NCBI GenBank assembly: GCA_900317585.1
Contig: ONHG01000005.1
Span: 110,214 to 174,213, forward strand
Direction of reading: 5' to 3'
DNA: 64,000 nucleotides
Origin: an uncultured Lachnospiraceae bacterium
GTDB taxonomy: Bacteria > Bacillota > Clostridia > Lachnospirales > Lachnospiraceae
In this document: positions 3,459-10,213 of the stretch, one piece after another
How positions within the stretch are numbered: position 1 is the first letter of the stretch
Layout: each line of letters starts with the position of its first letter
Made by a program: the position numbers and the translations under genes
Notes under the pieces: generated by a model
The model's input: only the letters and a program-made list of their open reading frames with translations
The model's database searches: none
What the model was told of the DNA's origin: nothing

Positions 3459-3995
3459 TTAAAAGAACTTCACAATATCATCAGGAGTCTTTCGCTTTGG
3501 TTTAGAAGGCTCAATTGTTCCGTATCCCACAGCAATAACAGCGACAACAGTCTCAGTATCGGGAATGCTTAATTCCTTGCGGATGGCCTCACCGTCACGT
3601 ATGCCCATGATAAGTGTATCGAGTCCAAGCTCTTTTGCTTTAAGTACGAAGTTTTCATTGTGCAGACCGAGGTCATAGTAGCCCCATCCGTTTCCGCACT
3701 CGTTGTCAGGATTACCCTCGCGGTCAAAGCCGGAACGGTTAGAGACAAATGTGGTAACTACAAGAGCAGCACCATGAGAGCTTTTGGCGTTAAATTCAGG
3801 CAGACAGTCTGCAGAAAATTTGGCTCTTGCCTCACCACTCAGTAAACAGTAGTATCTGGCAGTCTGCGAATTTTTCCAGGAAGGAGCCTGAATACCTGCT
3901 TCTATTAAAGTTTTTATCTGTTCCTTAGTTACGGCCTTTGTGTCATCAAAAGCACGTACACTTCTTCTTGCTTCAAGTAATGCATTAAATTCCAT
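3459..3995 (-). CDS. Nitroreductase-family flavoprotein
   Basis: FMN-dependent NAD(P)H oxidoreductase of the nitroreductase fold, 178 aa, cytoplasmic. It opens with the family's FMN-phosphate motif (LLEARRSVRAFDD), has the PSWKNSQ stretch, and contains the later LGLDTLIMG and AVGYG segments. The physiological substrate is unknown; relatives reduce nitroaromatics, quinones or flavins. AGGAGG lies 7 bases before the ATG on the minus strand. It is monocistronic, ending at the bidirectional terminator at 3385-3427. Confidence 0.85.
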   Translation of the reverse strand: MEFNALLEARRSVRAFDDTKAVTKEQIKTLIEAGIQAPSWKNSQTARYYCLLSGEARAKFSADCLPEFNAKSSHGAALVVTTFVSNRSGFDREGNPDNECGNGWGYYDLGLHNENFVLKAKELGLDTLIMGIRDGEAIRKELSIPDTETVVAVIAVGYGTIEPSKPKRKTPDDIVKFF

Positions 3996-4129: not shown

Positions 4130-4414
4130 ACGTAGGGGGCGCAAGTCACAGAGTCCGGGTGGGCACGCCACACCCTCGCGGACGCGGATAGCGGAGCAGC
4201 TTAGAAGCTGTAGAATTATGCCCATGAAACCCAGAAATGTCCAGCCATGGACGGCTGGGCAAGGCGTTATGCGCCATGGACGGCGCATAAAAGCCGGTTT
4301 CGTCAAGCATAGAAAAACCCAAAGGCATAATTCGTACAGAATCTTAGCTGCGAAGCGTAGCAGAAGCGAGAGTGTGGCGTGCCCACCCGGACTTTGTGAC
4401 TTACGCCACGCCCC
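4130..4414. repeat. Structured palindromic element E1 (candidate noncoding RNA or mobile element)
   Basis: About 285 bases of nested inverted repeats. The outer arm 4136-4179 is nearly complementary to 4366-4413. A middle arm (CTTAG.AGCTGTAGAATTATGCC) matches GGCATAATTCGTACAG.TCTTAG further in. The core has two hairpins in a row: CCAGCC-ATGGAC-GGCTGG (4241-4258) and ATGCGCC-ATGGAC-GGCGCAT (4269-4288). These are followed by AAAGCCGG and CGTCAAGCATAGAAAA. The core recurs in E2 at 9955-10213. G+C is higher than in neighbouring intergenic DNA. Open frames inside it are by-products of the palindrome. I do not recognise a named family with confidence. Confidence 0.75.
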
Positions 4415-4554
4415 ATGGCCATAATGATACAAAAATTCTGAATCCTAAAATAAGTTAAGGAAAAATACATAAAATATTTGAAAAATAAAGTCTGACGTAG
4501 TAGAATAGTAACATTGCACGAAAGAACCATGGAGAAATCGAAAGGGGGACAAAC
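4415..4554 (+). other. AT-rich leader of the MATE gene
   Basis: About 140 AT-rich bases between E1 and the MATE start. A strong GGGGG ribosome site (about 4544) precedes the ATG at 4555. No clear -35/-10 pair was found, so the promoter could lie in or before E1. Confidence 0.4.
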
Positions 4555-5940
4555 ATGCATAAATTCAGACAAAAATATATAGGAGACAAAGCATTTTATA
4601 AGCGCTATCTCATGCTGGCCATACCAATGATAATCCAGAATGCAATCACAAATCTGGTAAGCTTTCTGGACAACATTATGGTAGGACAGCTTGGTACAGA
4701 GCAGATGTCAGGAGTAGCAATCGTAAACCAGCTCATATTTGTGTACAATCTGGCTGTATTTGGGGCGGTGTCAGCGGCAAGTATATTCGGAGCACAGTAT
4801 TTTGGCAAGGGAAATCATAAGGGGCATATGTATTCCTTCAGATTCAAGCTGTATGCAGCGCTGCTTGTTACAGCAATAGCGATGACACTGTTTATCACGA
4901 ACGGAACAGGTTTAATATCACTTTATCTGACAGATACGGCAGGAAACGGTGCCACGGAGGTAGCACTGGCATATGGAAAGGAATATCTGGAAATTGTTAT
5001 GATAGGTCTCATACCGTTTGCGGTGACACAGGCCTATGCGACAAACATAAAGGAAACAGGACAGACTTTTGTACCGATGGTTGCAAGCTTTGCATCAGTT
5101 GGAAGCAATGCGGTGCTTGATTTTCTGCTTATCTTCGGAATAGGACCGATACCAAAGCTGGGTGTGGCGGGAGCCGCTATTGCCACGGTGATGTCGCGAT
5201 ATATTGAGACAATAATAGTTGTGCTGTGGGCGCATAAAAACAGGGATAGGAACAGATATCTCGAGGGCGCTTACAGAGGAATAGGAATGCCGTTTGGTGA
5301 GTTTAAGACTATATTCATCAAGGGACTTCCACTCATGCTCAATGAGCTTTTTTGGGCAGCAGGCATGACAACGGTTACACAGTGCTATTCAGTACGTGGG
5401 CTCTCGGTAATCGCAGGTTTAAACATTGCGACAACGATAACAAACCTTTTCAATATCGTGTTTATACAGCTTGGTGCATGCATCAGCATAGTTGTGGGGC
5501 AGTATCTTGGAGCCGGTGAGCTTGAAAAGGCAAAGGATGCGGATAACAAGATGATAGTGTTCAGTGTGTTCTGCTGTTCTATAATGGCGGCGGTCATGCT
5601 TCTGGTAGGAGGATTTTTCCCTCAGATATATAACACAACAGATGAAATCAAGTCACTCGCAACAAGCTTCATAGCGGTATCAGCGATAATTATGCCGTTT
5701 TGTGCATTTACACATTCGTCGTATTTCACACTCCGCTCAGGCGGCAAGACACTGGTTACATTTCTGTTTGACTCCGTATTTACGTGGGTGATAGTGGTGC
5801 CGGTGGCATTTGTGCTCGCCAAATACACAGCACTTGGCATAGTAGCGGTGTACTTCCTCGTGCAGGCCACAGAGCTGATAAAGGTAGTCATCGGATACTT
5901 CATGGTGAAAAGCGACGTGTGGCTCGTGCAGATGGTATAG
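4555..5940 (+). CDS. MATE-family efflux transporter
   Basis: Cation-coupled multidrug/toxin exporter of the inner membrane, 461 aa with about 12 membrane helices. The two pseudo-symmetric halves each open with the family pattern: IPMIIQNAITNLVSFLDNIMVGQLG near residue 22, and LPLMLNELFWAAGMT near residue 259. GAQYFGKG and GQYLGAGE mark the conserved loop in each half. Three MATE pumps occur in this window and are not tandem copies. The substrate cannot be told from the sequence. Confidence 0.92.
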   Translation: MHKFRQKYIGDKAFYKRYLMLAIPMIIQNAITNLVSFLDNIMVGQLGTEQMSGVAIVNQLIFVYNLAVFGAVSAASIFGAQYFGKGNHKGHMYSFRFKLYAALLVTAIAMTLFITNGTGLISLYLTDTAGNGATEVALAYGKEYLEIVMIGLIPFAVTQAYATNIKETGQTFVPMVASFASVGSNAVLDFLLIFGIGPIPKLGVAGAAIATVMSRYIETIIVVLWAHKNRDRNRYLEGAYRGIGMPFGEFKTIFIKGLPLMLNELFWAAGMTTVTQCYSVRGLSVIAGLNIATTITNLFNIVFIQLGACISIVVGQYLGAGELEKAKDADNKMIVFSVFCCSIMAAVMLLVGGFFPQIYNTTDEIKSLATSFIAVSAIIMPFCAFTHSSYFTLRSGGKTLVTFLFDSVFTWVIVVPVAFVLAKYTALGIVAVYFLVQATELIKVVIGYFMVKSDVWLVQMV

Positions 5941-6037
5941 GAATGTAAGTCATTATCTTGCGGAAAAATGAAATAAAAGTTATACTGTAGCAAAAGTCAG
6001 CATAATAGTTCTAACCCAGAATGAAACGGAGCATAAA

Positions 6038-7087
6038 ATGAGCGAAGAAAAACAGCACAAGCGCCGCGTACATTATAGCGGAAAATATCCCAAAAAATTT
6101 GAGGAAAAATACAAGGAGTTAAATCCGGAGAAATACAAGGATACAATTGAGCATGTCATCAGCAAAGGAAATACCCCTGCGGGCATGCACATATCTATAA
6201 TGGTAAAAGAAATCATAGATTTTCTGGACATAAAGCCGGGACAGACAGGCTTTGATGCCACACTCGGATACGGTGGCCACACAAGGGCAATGCTTGAAAA
6301 GCTTGAAGGACAGGGACATATGTTTGCTACAGATGTTGACCCAATCGAGTCTGAAAAGACAAAAAAGCGTCTCGCTGAAGCCGGCTTTGGAGAGGATATT
6401 CTCACCATAAAGCTTCAGAACTTCTGCACAATAGATGAGATTGCAAAGGAAGTAGGAGGCTTTGATTTCATACTTGCCGATCTGGGAGTTTCATCAATGC
6501 AGATAGATAATCCTGAGCGTGGATTTTCGTTTAAGGTGGATGGACCGTTGGATCTGCGTCTTAATCCAAATGCCGGTATCAGTGCGGCAGAGCGTCTTGA
6601 CAATATATCCCGTGAGGAGCTTTCGGGTATGCTCTATGAGAACTCAGATGAGCCGTATTGCGAGGAGCTTGCAAAGGCAATCACAGACGAAATCAGGAAG
6701 GGCAACCGCATAGATACGACCACAAAGCTTCGTCACATTATAGAACAGACACTTGATTTTCTGCCTGAAAAGGATAAGAAGGACATCATCAAAAAGACCT
6801 GTCAGCGCACATTCCAGGCGCTTCGCATAGACGTAAACCATGAGTTTGAGGTACTATATGAATTTATGGAAAAGCTTCCGGGAGCATTAAAGCCCGGCGG
6901 AAGAGCTGCCATCCTTACCTTTCATTCAGGAGAGGACAAGCTGGTCAAAAAGGCACTCAAGGCAGGATATAAAGCAGGAATATACAGCGACTATTCCAAG
7001 GATGTGATTCGCCCATCAGCACAGGAATGTGCTCAGAACGGACGTGCCAGGTCCACGAAGATGCGCTGGGCGGTTCGTGCGGAATAG
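6038..7087 (+). CDS. RsmH/MraW-like 16S rRNA methyltransferase paralogue
   Basis: S-adenosylmethionine-dependent methyltransferase of the RsmH family (N4-methylation of C1402 in 16S rRNA), 349 aa. Motif I reads FDATLGYGGHT, and ADLGVSSMQID followed by RGFSFK and GPLDLR is diagnostic. The insert domain and the C-terminal ILTFHSGEDKLVK are present. It differs from the housekeeping enzyme by a basic N-terminal extension of about 50 residues before the usual start, and it is not in a division/cell-wall (dcw) cluster. It may therefore be a second paralogue with its own target. GGAG about 8 bases upstream supports the start. Confidence 0.85.
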   Translation: MSEEKQHKRRVHYSGKYPKKFEEKYKELNPEKYKDTIEHVISKGNTPAGMHISIMVKEIIDFLDIKPGQTGFDATLGYGGHTRAMLEKLEGQGHMFATDVDPIESEKTKKRLAEAGFGEDILTIKLQNFCTIDEIAKEVGGFDFILADLGVSSMQIDNPERGFSFKVDGPLDLRLNPNAGISAAERLDNISREELSGMLYENSDEPYCEELAKAITDEIRKGNRIDTTTKLRHIIEQTLDFLPEKDKKDIIKKTCQRTFQALRIDVNHEFEVLYEFMEKLPGALKPGGRAAILTFHSGEDKLVKKALKAGYKAGIYSDYSKDVIRPSAQECAQNGRARSTKMRWAVRAE

Positions 7088-7200
7088 AAAAGAATAAAAA
7101 TAGTTCTAAAACACTATTGCTTTATTGAGAAAAATAGTCTACTATGAATGTGTTATATGACTGACGGATAAGTGGAATAACCACATGAAATATAACAAAT

Positions 7201-7246
7201 AAGAGCCGACCGTCTGGGCGATAAACCCGGACAGTTGGCTCTTTTT
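7201..7246 (+). terminator. Rho-independent terminator after the RsmH paralogue
   Basis: AAGAGCCGACCGTCTGGG pairs with CCCGGACAGTTGGCTCTT around a GATAAA-type loop, followed by a T run. A strong stem that isolates pflB from upstream transcription. Confidence 0.88.
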
Positions 7247-7313
7247 GATTATAAAATCAGCCATAGTCGTATAAATAACCAGGGAATGTATCTCAAAAGA
7301 AACAACATGGATA

Positions 7314-7343
7314 TTGACAAAAATGCTGTAGTGAGTATATACT
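7314..7343 (+). promoter_or_regulatory. Sigma-70-type promoter of pflB
   Basis: TTGACA at 7314-7319 and TATACT at 7338-7343, spacing 18. The predicted start is near 7350, giving a leader of about 58 bases. It lies just after the terminator and just before the highly biased pflB frame. Confidence 0.75.
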
Positions 7344-7407
7344 AACCACAGTTAAACAAAACTAATCAAACGAAGTAACATTCACACATTTTAAGGAGGA
7401 TATTACA

Positions 7408-9660
7408 ATGATAGAAATGAAAGAGTGGGATGGATTTGAAGGACGTCTTTGGAAAGAGGAAATCAACGTCCGTCAGTTTATTCAGGACAACTACACTCCA
7501 TACGACGGAGACGAGAGCTTTTTAGCTGATCCGACAGATGCTACAAACAAGCTGTGGGACGCACTCCAGAAATTACAGAAAGAAGAGCGTGCCAAGGGCG
7601 GAGTTCTTGACATGGAGACAGAGGTTGTAACAGGAATCACAGCTTACGGCCCTGGATATATAGATGAGTCATTAAAGGACCTCGAGCAGATTGTAGGTCT
7701 TCAGACAGATAAGCCGTTAAAGAGAGCATTCATGCCTTACGGTGGAATCAAGATGGCGGTACAGGCTGCTGAGACATATGGTTACGATGTAAGCGACAAG
7801 CTTAAGGAGATTTTCACAAAATATCATAAGACACATAACACAGCAGTATTCGATGCATACACACCTGAGATGATGAAGGTTCGTCATGCAAAGATCCTTA
7901 CAGGTCTTCCTGACACATACGGCCGTGGACGTATCGTGGGCGATTACCGTCGAGTAGCATTATACGGAATTGATTACCTCATCGAGGAGAAAAAGAAGGA
8001 TAAGGCAAACTGTGGCTGTGGACAGATGACAGATGATGTTATCCGTTTAAGAGAGGAAATCGCAGAGCAGATTAAATGTCTTGAGGAGATGAAGAAGCTT
8101 GCAGAGATTTACGGATACGATATCTCAAGACCTGCGACAAACGCAAAAGAGGCAGTTCAGTGGTTATACTTCGGATACCTTGCAGCAATCAAGACACAGA
8201 ATGGTGCAGCAATGTCAGTAGGACGTGTATCTACATTCCTTGATATCTACATCAAGAGAGATATGGACAAGGGCATCCTCACAGAGCAGGAAGCACAGGA
8301 GCTCATCGACCATTTTACAATGAAGCTTCGTATGGTTAAATTTGCACGTATCCCTTCATACAATCAGTTATTCTCAGGTGATCCTGTATGGGCAACACTT
8401 GACGTGGCAGGAACAGGTGTGGATGGACGTTCAATGGTTACAAAGACAGACTTCCGTTTCCTCCATACATTAGAGAACATGGGACCTGCACCGGAGCCAA
8501 ACCTCACAGTATTCTACTCATCAAAGCTTCCTCAGACCTTCAAGGATTATGCAGCCCGCATCTCAATTGAGACAAGCTCAATCCAGTATGAGAACGATGA
8601 CGCAATGAAGCCGGTATGGGGCGATGATTATGCAATCTGCTGCTGTGTATCTGCAACACAGACAGGTAAAGAGATGCAGTTCTTCGGAGCACGTGCAAAC
8701 CTTGCAAAATGTCTCCTCTACGCTATCAATGGTGGTGTTGATGAGAAATCAGGTGAGCAGGTAGGACCAAACTACGCACCTATCACAGCAGAGTACCTTG
8801 ACTATGACGAGGTAATGGCGAAATACGACAAGATGATGGACTGGTTAGTAGATATCTATGTAAATACATTAAACCTTATCCAGTACATGCATGACAAATA
8901 CTACTATGAGGCAGCAGAGCTTGCACTCATGGATACAGACTTAAAGAGAACATTCGCAACAGGAATCGCAGGATTCTCACACGTAATCGATTCTCTTTCA
9001 GCAATCAAATATGCAAAGGTTAAAGTAGTACGTGACGAGAGCGGACTGGCAAAGGATTTCGAAATTGAGGGAGAGTTCCCTAAATACGGAAACGATGATG
9101 ACCGCGCGGACGAAATCGGTGTATGGCTTCTTAAGACATTCATGGACAAGTTAAAGAAGCATCACACATACCGTGATTCAGAGCCTACAACATCAATCCT
9201 TACAATTACATCAAACGTAGTATACGGAAAAGCTACAGGAGCAATGCCTGATGGACGTAAAGCCGGAGAGCCACTCTCACCGGGAGCAAACCCATCATAC
9301 GGCGCAGAGCAGAATGGACTTCTCGCATCCTTAAACTCACTCACAAAGCTTCCATATGAGTGGGCACTTGATGGAATCTCAAATACACAGACCATCAACC
9401 CGGGAGCACTCGGAAACAACGAGAGAGAGAGAATAGACAACCTTGTAAACGTAATGGACGGATACTTCGATCAGGGTGCACATCACCTCAATGTAAATGT
9501 ATTCGGTAAAGAGAAACTCATCGATGCAATGGAGCATCCTGAGAAGGAGGAGTACGCAAACTTCACAATCCGAGTATCAGGATACGCAGTTAAGTTCATC
9601 GACCTCACAAGAGAGCAGCAGCTCGATGTAATCTCACGTACATGCCATGAGAGAATGTAA
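7408..9660 (+). CDS. pflB: Pyruvate formate-lyase (formate C-acetyltransferase)
   Basis: Glycyl-radical enzyme that cleaves pyruvate with coenzyme A to acetyl-CoA and formate, central to anaerobic fermentation; 750 aa, the usual length. The catalytic cysteines lie in CCCVSA at residues 411-413. The glycyl-radical loop RVSGYAV places the radical at G725. The C-terminus [18 protein letters not shown] is typical. AGGAGG is 8 bases before the ATG. Codon use is strongly biased, indicating high expression. Its activase is the next gene, about 600 bases on, separated by two structured elements. Confidence 0.97.
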
Positions 9661-9836
9661 TATGATCTAAGGTGTCACAGAGTGTACTACGATTCTGCTT
9701 GCAGAAAGAGTAGTATGCTCTTGTGACCCGAACAAACATGAGCAAGAAGCGATTTTCGTAAGAAAAGAAGCGGATTGCGAATGGTTGTAGAATTGCGTAA
9801 GTTGCAGGGCAACGGAGCAATTCGTAGATCATATTA
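9658..9836 (+). repeat. Inverted-repeat-bounded structured segment in the pflB 3' region
   Basis: TAATATGATCTA at 9658-9669 (its first three bases are the pflB stop codon) is the exact reverse complement of TAGATCATATTA at 9825-9836. In between lie a long hairpin (GTCACAGAGTGTACTAC against GTAGTATGCTCTTGTGAC, 9674-9727) and a smaller ATTTTC/GAAAA hairpin near 9750. A third has GAATTGC..GCAATTC with inner GTTGC/CAAC (about 9789-9823). It could be a multi-stem 3' UTR or a small non-autonomous mobile element. Confidence 0.65.
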
Positions 9837-9902
9837 GGATATGCCATATATTATGTATGTGGTATAAATTTACAGAGTTAATATACAATTATAGATATTC
9901 CG

Positions 9903-9940
9903 GAATGTGCAGGCCAAGTGCCTGCATATTCTGATTTTCT
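9903..9940 (+). terminator. Terminator-like hairpin after pflB
   Basis: GAATGTGCAGGC (9903-9914) pairs over 12 positions with GCCTGCATATTC (9920-9931) around CAAGT. TGATTTTCT follows, so the T run is interrupted. It probably ends most pflB transcripts before the activase gene. Confidence 0.65.
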
Positions 9941-9954
9941 AAATAACACCACAG

Positions 9955-10213
9955 CGTAAGGAATTTTCGGCAACCCGCCGACCGGGACTTGGCAATGCGA
10001 ATTTCGCAGGGCTTAGAGGCTGTTAGAATTATGAACACAGCCAGCGATGCCCATGCATGGACGCATGGGCAAGGCGTTATGCGCCATGGAAGGCGCGTAA
10101 AAGCCGGTCGCGTCAAGCATAGAAAACCTAAATCATAATTCATACAGCCTCTTAGCCCGAAGAACCTGAGCATTGAAAAATCCCGGTCGGCGGGGTGCCG
10201 AAAATTCCGTACC
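9955..10213. repeat. Structured palindromic element E2, related to E1
   Basis: About 260 bases between pflB and pflA. The outer arm 9960-9990 is complementary to 10179-10208. A middle arm (GGCTTAGAGGCTGTTAGAATTATGA) pairs with 10133-10157. The core matches E1: hairpin GCCCATGC-ATGGAC-GCATGGGC (10049-10070), hairpin ATGCGCC-ATGGAA-GGCGCGT (10079-10098), then AAAAGCCGG and CGTCAAGCATAGAAAA. The outer arms share no sequence with E1 but keep the pairing, and the first core stem differs by compensatory changes. Confidence 0.75.

What the first reader, a model, noticed from the sequence alone, without database searches (positions are those of the whole stretch)
4130..10213. Two copies of a palindromic element with covarying AUGGAC-loop hairpins: candidate new structured RNA family
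E1 (4130-4414) and E2 (9955-10213) share a core of two adjacent hairpins. First: CCAGCC-ATGGAC-GGCTGG in E1 against GCCCATGC-ATGGAC-GCATGGGC in E2. Second: ATGCGCC-ATGGAC-GGCGCAT against ATGCGCC-ATGGAA-GGCGCGT. Both continue with AAAGCCGG..CGTCAAGCATAGAAAA. The first stem changes at several places with pairing kept, the second by G-U substitution. The outer arms (about 30-45 bp) have unrelated sequence in the two copies but remain palindromic. Selection thus acts on fold, not on sequence. Known large RNA families or transposon-associated RNAs (for example HEARO/omega RNA) are not excluded.
Basis: partly seen in the sequence, partly recalled or inferred. Interest (0 to 1): 0.82.

Follow-up and report, generated by a model that had tools for sequence, protein, structure and literature searches.

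The report
Known TwoAYGGAY RNA in invertible repeats
The two elements belong to a known but unexplained bacterial RNA family (TwoAYGGAY); here they are two of 33 copies scattered mostly between genes, each a long palindrome whose middle has flipped in place at some sites between close relatives, and whose two hairpin loops look like docking sites for the regulator protein CsrA.

Summary
A 2014 paper already predicted, from motif matches alone, that it binds CsrA.

What I add:
(1) It is a dispersed repeat: 33 copies in this draft genome, 49 in a close relative.
(2) The outer arms pair within every copy though mostly unrelated between copies. Their mismatches show no G-U excess (45 G-U, 37 A-C), so DNA-level homogenisation fits better than selection on an RNA fold.
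(3) Between the two genomes the core is inverted in place at 6 of 22 loci with both flanks aligned.
(4) Loops read exactly CA-N-GGA-N-G, the published CsrA/RsmE contact motif, in 99 and 92 of 117 copies. At orthologous loci the fixed letters changed 3/288 times, the two free letters 9/96.
(5) csrA is in 44 of 45 genomes with the RNA and 110 of 254 without, confounded with flagella.

Best reading: invertible CsrA-binding repeats. CsrA binding, transcription and any effect of flipping are inferred, not shown.

The parts
4130..4414 (+). E1, whole element: TwoAYGGAY core inside inverted-repeat arms
   Evidence: same orientation in G313 and in A. rectalis DFI.5.28
4130..4188 (+). E1 5' outer arm (outside the Rfam model)
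   Evidence: 39 of 42 aligned arm positions Watson-Crick with the 3' arm (locus L004)
4189..4358 (+). E1 core, RF01731, 150.2 bits
4238..4261 (+). E1 hairpin 1, 9 pairs, loop AUGGAC closed by C-G (4247-4252)
4267..4290 (+). E1 hairpin 2, 9 pairs, loop AUGGAC closed by C-G (4276-4281)
4359..4414 (+). E1 3' outer arm
9955..10213 (+). E2, whole element, between pflB and pflA
   Evidence: half-deleted in G313 and in A. rectalis DFI.5.28
9955..10001 (+). E2 5' outer arm
   Evidence: 38 of 43 aligned arm positions Watson-Crick (locus L026)
10002..10165 (+). E2 core, RF01731, 133.4 bits
10048..10071 (+). E2 hairpin 1, 9 pairs, loop AUGGAC (10057-10062)
10077..10100 (+). E2 hairpin 2, 9 pairs, loop AUGGAA (10086-10091)
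10166..10213 (+). E2 3' outer arm

Best explanation
E1 and E2 are members of the known RNA family TwoAYGGAY (RF01731). In this Agathobacter genome the family is a dispersed, mostly intergenic repeat: a conserved core of about 170 bp inside long inverted-repeat arms. Read from one strand, the core presents two hairpin loops of the form C-A-N-G-G-A-N-G, and most likely each element captures one CsrA dimer (two RNA sites per dimer), so that transcribed copies titrate CsrA and/or give neighbouring transcripts a CsrA site. The arms are kept matched, and the core is flipped in place, by DNA exchange between the arms, most simply polymerase template switching; flipping moves the loops to the other strand. 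SHOWN: family membership, copy number, arm pairing, core inversions between close genomes, conservation of exactly the CsrA-contact letters at orthologous loci, presence of csrA in the genome. INFERRED: transcription, CsrA binding, titration or cis control, any regulatory effect of flipping, and the template-switching step.
For: Rfam match. 33 copies in the own genome, 49 in G313. Inversion at 6 of 22 orthologous loci whose two flanks both align; at one of them (L014) the named strain A. rectalis DFI.5.28 shares the G313 orientation. Arms: no wobble excess outside the model, 45 G-U to 37 A-C; 21 Watson-Crick-to-Watson-Crick double changes between the two genomes against 6.6 double changes of any kind expected. 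Template switching is described as causing both arm homogenisation and spacer inversion (PMC8604942, passages). Loops: exact CA-N-GGA-N-G in 99 and 92 of 117 rows, equal to the RsmE optimum A/UCANGGANGU/A (PMC5864733, passages). Orthologous loci: fixed letters 3/288 changed, free letters 9/96, p = 3e-4; for loops intact in G000, 0/252 against 9/84, flanks 416/12,784. csrA: 44 of 45 RNA-positive, 110 of 254 RNA-negative genomes, p = 1.7e-13. A standard csrA follows fliW in this genome.
Against: No expression or binding data. csrA and flagella cannot be separated: FlhA is in 45 of 45 and 110 of 254, and relatedness of the genomes is not corrected for. 26 loops of 1 kind or the other fail the exact motif more often in relatives than here: loop 1 in 18 and loop 2 in 25 of 117 rows, mostly one letter short, 7 rows failing in both. 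No strand preference relative to neighbouring genes (++ 12, +- 8, -- 8, -+ 5). No conserved promoter was found; a terminator-like hairpin at 9901-9933 lies between pflB and E2, which speaks against simple read-through into E2. Individual copies are dispensable: E2 and the L030 locus are half-deleted in G313. The core as a whole is not significantly slower than flanks (45/1,833 against 416/12,784, p = 0.07). No within-culture flipping has been seen.
Confidence: 0.55

Rival explanations
1. A DNA-level mobile or REP/MITE-like repeat: the folded single strand of DNA, not an RNA, is what matters, and the conserved loops are read by a transposase or similar enzyme. CsrA has nothing to do with it.
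For: Dispersed copies; recent subfamily bursts in G143; a repeated ~1 kb divergent-pair unit with terminal inverted repeats in G349; neighbours under 1 kb apart are 12 divergent, 3 tandem, 0 convergent in five genomes, though several pairs are copies of one unit and so not independent.
Against: Conservation follows the CsrA motif letter by letter, both N positions free. csrA co-occurrence. Most copies are at the same place in the two close genomes (26 of 33 paired). No transposase was tied to the element. The two non-shared loci examined (E2, L030) are half-deletions, not empty sites.
Confidence: 0.22
2. A structured RNA with another role or ligand (mRNA stability, an unknown RNA-binding protein); the resemblance to CsrA sites is a coincidence of a conserved hexaloop.
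For: Family function is unknown in print; E1 sits between divergent genes and E2 within an operon-like pair; one strand shows a wobble excess in the inner stem.
Against: The fixed and free letters coincide with the CsrA/RsmE motif, and there are two such loops per element, as in paired sites for a dimer.
Confidence: 0.13
3. The inversion is made by a dedicated site-specific recombinase acting at a conserved site, an inverton in the strict sense, rather than by arm-to-arm template switching or recombination.
For: Inversions at 6 of 22 loci; a tyrosine recombinase gene (Phage_integrase, 92.7 bits) lies near the second csrA-like gene and a flagellin-like gene; the inner stem is conserved and could hold a site.
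Against: The arms have no common sequence. At inverted loci no arm mismatch closer than 41 nt to the model is shared unflipped, while 5 of 14 non-inverted loci share mismatches within 6-10 nt, which points to exchange within the arms.
Confidence: 0.12
4. One reading: the outer arms stay palindromic because selection preserves the fold of a long RNA stem.
For: Single changes between G000 and G313 lean weakly to G-U (38 against 23 A-C).
Against: No wobble excess over 1,586 arm positions; 8 of the 21 double changes are of transversion type, which cannot pass through a single G-U step (counted by hand); core inversion shows the arms exchange as DNA.
Confidence: 0.12

Closest known systems
TwoAYGGAY RNA (Rfam RF01731, clan CL00106)
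   Same: E1 and E2 match the full 168-position model far above its cut-off; two hairpins with AYGGAY-type loops.
   Different: The family is described in the passages seen as an RNA of unknown function and predicted CsrA-binding sRNA. Its arrangement as dozens of inverted-repeat copies and its in-place inversion were not found in the papers searched.
CsrA-sequestering sRNAs (CsrB, CsrC, RsmX, RsmY, RsmZ)
   Same: Hairpin loops with the GGA motif, usually in pairs for the CsrA dimer (PMC4333381, passages); host has csrA.
   Different: Those are, from recall, one or a few dedicated genes with many sites each; here there are many dispersed copies with two sites each, no conserved promoter was found, and binding is untested. 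Works like, not member.
Invertons and quasi-palindromes with template switching
   Same: Inverted repeats flank a segment that inverts; arm homogenisation and reversible spacer inversion are described for template switching in yeast (PMC8604942, passages).
   Different: The spacer is a ~170 bp conserved RNA-like core; no recombinase is assigned; inversion seen only between genomes.
REP/BIME and MITE repeats (from recall)
   Same: Dispersed intergenic palindromes, paired copies, subfamily bursts.
   Different: Larger, with a two-hairpin core under letter-specific conservation; no associated transposase found.

Membership tests
TwoAYGGAY (RF01731) | Score above the curated Rfam cut-off over the whole model | tested here: met
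   150.2 and 133.4 bits against 43, positions 1-168 of 168
TwoAYGGAY (RF01731) | Two hairpins with AYGGAY-type loops and covarying stems | tested here: met
CsrA-binding RNA | Two or more hairpin loops fitting CA-N-GGA-N-G | tested here: met
   All four loops of E1 and E2; exact in 99 and 92 of 117 rows, 81 with both
CsrA-binding RNA | csrA in the same genome | tested here: met
   Two PF02599 genes in the own genome; 44 of 45 RNA-positive genomes of the family sample
CsrA-binding RNA | Binds CsrA and relieves its action | not testable with these tools
   Needs a binding assay and genetics
CsrA-binding RNA | Transcribed as an RNA | not testable with these tools
   No RNA-seq at hand; promoter scans unconvincing
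Inverton | Segment between inverted repeats found in both orientations at one locus | tested here: met
   6 of 22 loci between G000 and G313; L014 also in a named strain
Inverton | Both orientations within one clonal population, with an assigned recombinase | not testable with these tools
   No reads available
MITE/REP mobile element | Occupied and empty sites with target duplication | tested here: inconclusive
   The two loci examined as non-shared are half-deletions; units with terminal inverted repeats in G349
HEARO / raiA / ROOL | Rfam model match | tested here: not met
   Not among the five matches of the whole-window scan

The most novel reading that the evidence does not exclude
A genome-wide, phase-variable CsrA switch: dozens of dispersed CsrA-binding cassettes flip in place by exchange between their inverted-repeat arms. 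Each flip puts the GGA loops onto, or takes them off, the transcribed strand of a neighbouring operon (for E2, the pflB-pflA region), and together the flips tune the cell's free CsrA pool and with it motility and central metabolism.
Probability: 0.2. Interest if true: 0.88.

Novelty: new variant of a known kind. Interest (0 to 1): 0.6.

Why it matters
TwoAYGGAY was listed in 2010 as a probable RNA without a function, and the 2014 proposal that it binds CsrA rested on motif matches. Letter-by-letter conservation at orthologous loci, the csrA co-occurrence and the presence of dozens of copies make that proposal sharper and directly testable; CsrA-sequestering sRNAs had been identified only in Gammaproteobacteria when that paper was written. 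In-place inversion of an RNA-like cassette, with arms that stay matched while their sequence turns over, also warns that covariation in long palindromic arms can come from DNA template switching rather than from selection on an RNA fold, which bears on how new structured RNAs are called from sequence.

Tried and rejected
Rejected: a new RNA family (RF01731 matches). Rejected: HEARO, raiA, ROOL. Led nowhere: 80 named loci fetched by the rsmH-like protein (80 kept of 158 found). Model R1 found no element in any of the 80 at E up to 0.01, and only one, L080 (Agathobacter sp. SUG778), keeps pflB and pflA beside the query; there the two genes abut with no element. The rest are not syntenic over this region and say nothing about E1 or E2. 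Phages: no match of the E1 core and no exact match of two core patterns in viral contigs. Plasmids: one record matched; it carries ribosomal-protein and RNA polymerase genes and so looks chromosomal.

An orientation-blind divergence table was discarded because inverted loci inflate it; replace it. In one search, 26 pairs were entered and 24 gave counts (L003 and L115 gave none); five of the 21 double changes come from L007, whose core is only 70% identical in G313 and may be a replacement, and four from L010, aligned on one flank only. In one search, four of 26 pairs (L003, L007, L010, L115) were dropped for a one-sided flank. Of 33 own copies, 26 were paired in this way; E2 (L026), half-deleted in G313, and six others (L011, L019, L020, L025, L027, L030) were not. 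One search looked at the 6 inverted and at 14 of the 16 same-orientation loci (L021 and L114 left out); one arm mismatch at a same-orientation locus (L022) appears flipped. The wobble test in the core hairpins is weak: 6 G-U against 1 A-C, and 8 against 4. The tally 3/288 against 9/96 was counted by hand, leaving out L007 and the two loops degenerate in both genomes; two of the three losses are in one decaying copy (L115). The 44-of-45 overlap was made by comparing the printed tables (matches at E up to 0.001; 43 of the 45 and 152 of 154 pass the curated cut-offs). The exception, G168, has FlhA and is 93% complete, so its csrA may be missing from the assembly. Copy numbers are capped at 9 per genome; at most 75 candidates per genome were scored, so its counts are lower bounds for some.

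The same check showed that 'all 33 intergenic' was too strong.

Literature: TwoAYGGAY; TwoAYGGAY with CsrA; invertible with Eubacterium rectale; CsrA with Lachnospiraceae; invertons with Lachnospiraceae; CsrA with sponge, Firmicutes, sRNA and FliW; TwoAYGGAY with Eubacterium, Roseburia and others were searched. In the listings and passages seen I found no report of inverted-repeat multicopy organisation or inversion of TwoAYGGAY. The library is open access only; of 7 papers holding the word, 5 were listed and 4 read in passages (PMC11661157 was not opened).
Full report
Observation. E1 lies between divergent ORFs (178 aa on minus, 461 aa on plus), E2 between ORFs that correspond to pflB and pflA (gene names from the annotated homologues in A. 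rectalis DFI.5.28). Each core holds two adjacent hairpins of 9 pairs.

Identity. A scan of the whole window against 4,227 Rfam families gives TwoAYGGAY (RF01731) at 4189-4358 (150.2 bits) and 10002-10165 (133.4 bits), cut-off 43. It is therefore a known family. It was listed in 2010 as probably an RNA and probably not cis-regulatory (PMC2864571, one passage). A 2014 paper proposed, from matches to a CsrA-binding motif model, that it is a CsrA-binding sRNA of Clostridia, as a testable hypothesis (PMC4333381, passages). Later work added covarying pairs to its structure (PMC7657543 and PMC11701678, one or two passages each).

Copy number and placement. The window's own genome (2.57 Mb draft, 86.6% complete) has 33 copies, all over the cut-off. 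A close relative, G313, one contig of 3,449,685 bp, has 49; that length is, from recall, the one published for Eubacterium rectale ATCC 33656. Of 299 genomes drawn from the family, 45 have a match; 24 of the 45, rescored more fully, carry 1 to 50 copies (lower bounds for some). With the element masked, all 33 own copies have ORFs on both sides, with no strand preference: ++ 12, +- 8, -- 8, -+ 5. Unmasked, ORFs of 183 and 140 codons run into two cores (L114, L115), and ORFs of 200 codons or more end or begin within an arm at three loci (L012, L013, L027). Intergenic placement is thus firm for 28 of 33.

Arms. In all 33 copies the outer arms are complementary, whereas arms of different copies are mostly unrelated, apart from a subset including L003, L008, L009, L011 and L115 that share arms. 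Over 1,586 aligned arm positions outside the Rfam model 1,426 are Watson-Crick; among mismatches G-U (45) is no commoner than A-C (37), p = 0.44. In the inner stem, inside the model, G-U exceeds A-C 15 to 3, p = 0.0075. The inner stem thus shows the strand-specific wobble expected of a functional folded strand; the outer arms do not. Between G000 and G313, 1,132 arm pairs differ at 7.6% of sites and show 32 double changes where 6.6 are expected; 21 go from one Watson-Crick pair to another, 8 of them of transversion type (counted by hand). Single changes lean weakly to G-U (38 against 23 A-C).

Inversion. For each of 26 locus pairs between G000 and G313 I asked whether the core has the same orientation relative to the flanks. 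In 22, both flanks align over at least 300 bp. In 16 the core has the same orientation; in 6 (L002, L005, L014, L016, L018, L113) it is inverted, with 116/124 to 129/130 identical letters over the aligned stretch. A named third strain, A. rectalis DFI.5.28, is inverted relative to G000 at the L014 locus, as is G313, and unchanged at E1. At the six inverted loci the arm mismatches shared unflipped all lie 41 nt or more outside the model, and none closer in is shared, while 5 of 14 non-inverted loci share mismatches within 6-10 nt. The simplest reading is exchange within the arms. Template switching between inverted repeats is described, in yeast, as causing both arm homogenisation and reversible spacer inversion (PMC8604942, passages). 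It is inferred; no flipping within a culture has been seen.

Decay. E2 is half-deleted in G313 and in DFI.5.28, where an IS607-family transposase and a TnpB gene are annotated between pflB and pflA. The L030 locus has lost one arm and part of its core in G313. Copies are thus individually dispensable, and neither of these two loci is an empty insertion site.

Mobility elsewhere. In G143, subfamilies with their own arms are near-identical across copies, several at contig ends. In G349 five loci share a unit of about 1 kb with two divergent copies and terminal inverted repeats (ends by eye). Of 143 copies in five genomes, neighbours under 1 kb apart are 12 divergent, 3 tandem, 0 convergent; several are copies of one unit and so not independent. 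No transposase was tied to the element.

Hairpins and loops. In 117 rows (115 distinct) from the own genome and relatives, the covariation score of the 15 hairpin pairs is 0.713 against 0.162 shuffled; the alignment was fitted to a model made from 33 of these copies and leans towards the stems. Where a letter is present, loop 1 reads C 116/116, A 113/114, N, G 108/110, G 115/116, A 115/115, N, G 116/116, and loop 2 is alike; both N positions vary. Counting gaps as failures, the exact motif CA-N-GGA-N-G is in 99 of 117 first loops and 92 of 117 second loops, 81 rows having both and 7 neither; most failures are one letter short. The published optimum for RsmE, a CsrA homologue, is A/UCANGGANGU/A (PMC5864733, passages). 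At orthologous loci, for loops intact in G000, the six fixed letters changed 0 of 252 times and the two free letters 9 of 84, against 416 of 12,784 in flanks. Counting loops intact in either genome gives 3 of 288 against 9 of 96, p = 3e-4. Conservation therefore holds the CsrA-contact letters and leaves the others free, also in inverted copies. As a whole the core is not significantly slower than the flanks (45/1,833, p = 0.07).

CsrA. The genome encodes a standard CsrA directly after FliW, matching solved CsrA/RsmE chains, among them entry 2jpp, which PMC5864733 names as the RsmE-RNA complex, and a CsrA-like paralogue (57.9 bits) beside a flagellin-like ORF (flagellin by eye). In the family sample csrA is found in 44 of 45 RNA-positive and 110 of 254 RNA-negative genomes, p = 1.7e-13. 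FlhA is in 45 of 45 and 110 of 254, so csrA and flagella cannot be told apart, and relatedness among genera is not corrected for. In a sample of 60 genomes of the window's genus, 24 have the RNA and 23 of these csrA; csrA is in 56 of 60, so this set says little.

Mechanism. Most likely each transcribed element folds into a rod capped by two CsrA hairpins and holds one CsrA dimer. Dozens of copies could act as a distributed sponge, and copies inside operons could place a CsrA site in the message. Flipping would move the loops to the other strand. Transcription, binding and regulation are not shown. The lack of strand preference argues against a uniform cis role, and a terminator-like hairpin at 9901-9933, between pflB and E2, argues against simple read-through into E2.

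Verdict. Observation confirmed; 'new family' refuted by RF01731. The invertible, multicopy inverted-repeat setting and the locus-level conservation of the CsrA letters were not found in the searches made (open-access library only) and make the CsrA hypothesis testable.

Noticed in passing
window 9663-9831 (+): A Clostridiales-1 RNA (RF01699, 102.9 bits) lies directly after pflB and before E2; it is present in G313, while in A. rectalis DFI.5.28 the sequence after the pflB stop runs on without it (by eye).
   Followed up: partly
window 7147-7226 (+): ZMP/ZTP riboswitch (RF01750, 59.3 bits) upstream of pflB.
   Followed up: no
window 9901-9933 (+): Terminator-like hairpin (14 pairs, T-rich tail) between the Clostridiales-1 RNA and E2.
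   Followed up: no
window 3459-3995 (-): The 178-aa ORF upstream of E1 has no counterpart at this place in G313: about 670 bp of the window are replaced by about 75 bp there.
   Followed up: no
L118 3434-6107: A second csrA-like gene (57.9 bits) lies between a flagellin-like ORF and a tyrosine recombinase ORF (Phage_integrase, 92.7 bits) in the window's genome. Several genomes of the genus sample have extra csrA-like genes of this lower-scoring kind.
   Followed up: partly
L277 38256-43536 (NZ_CP143948.1): In A. rectalis DFI.5.28 an IS607-family transposase gene and a TnpB gene are annotated between pflB and pflA, beside the half-deleted E2.
   Followed up: partly
L278, L279 (NZ_CP143948.1): The 251,725-bp record labelled a plasmid carries ribosomal-protein, rpoB/rpoC and fusA/tuf genes and looks like a piece of chromosome.
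   Followed up: no
L140 2920-3200 (G000:C30): Between the divergent pair of copies lie two short tandem stretches that resemble solo arms without a core, perhaps remnants of deleted elements (by eye).
   Followed up: no
L141 and L119-L138 (G143); L245-L274 (G349, G302): In these genomes divergent pairs of copies are embedded in larger repeated units with their own ends.
   Followed up: partly
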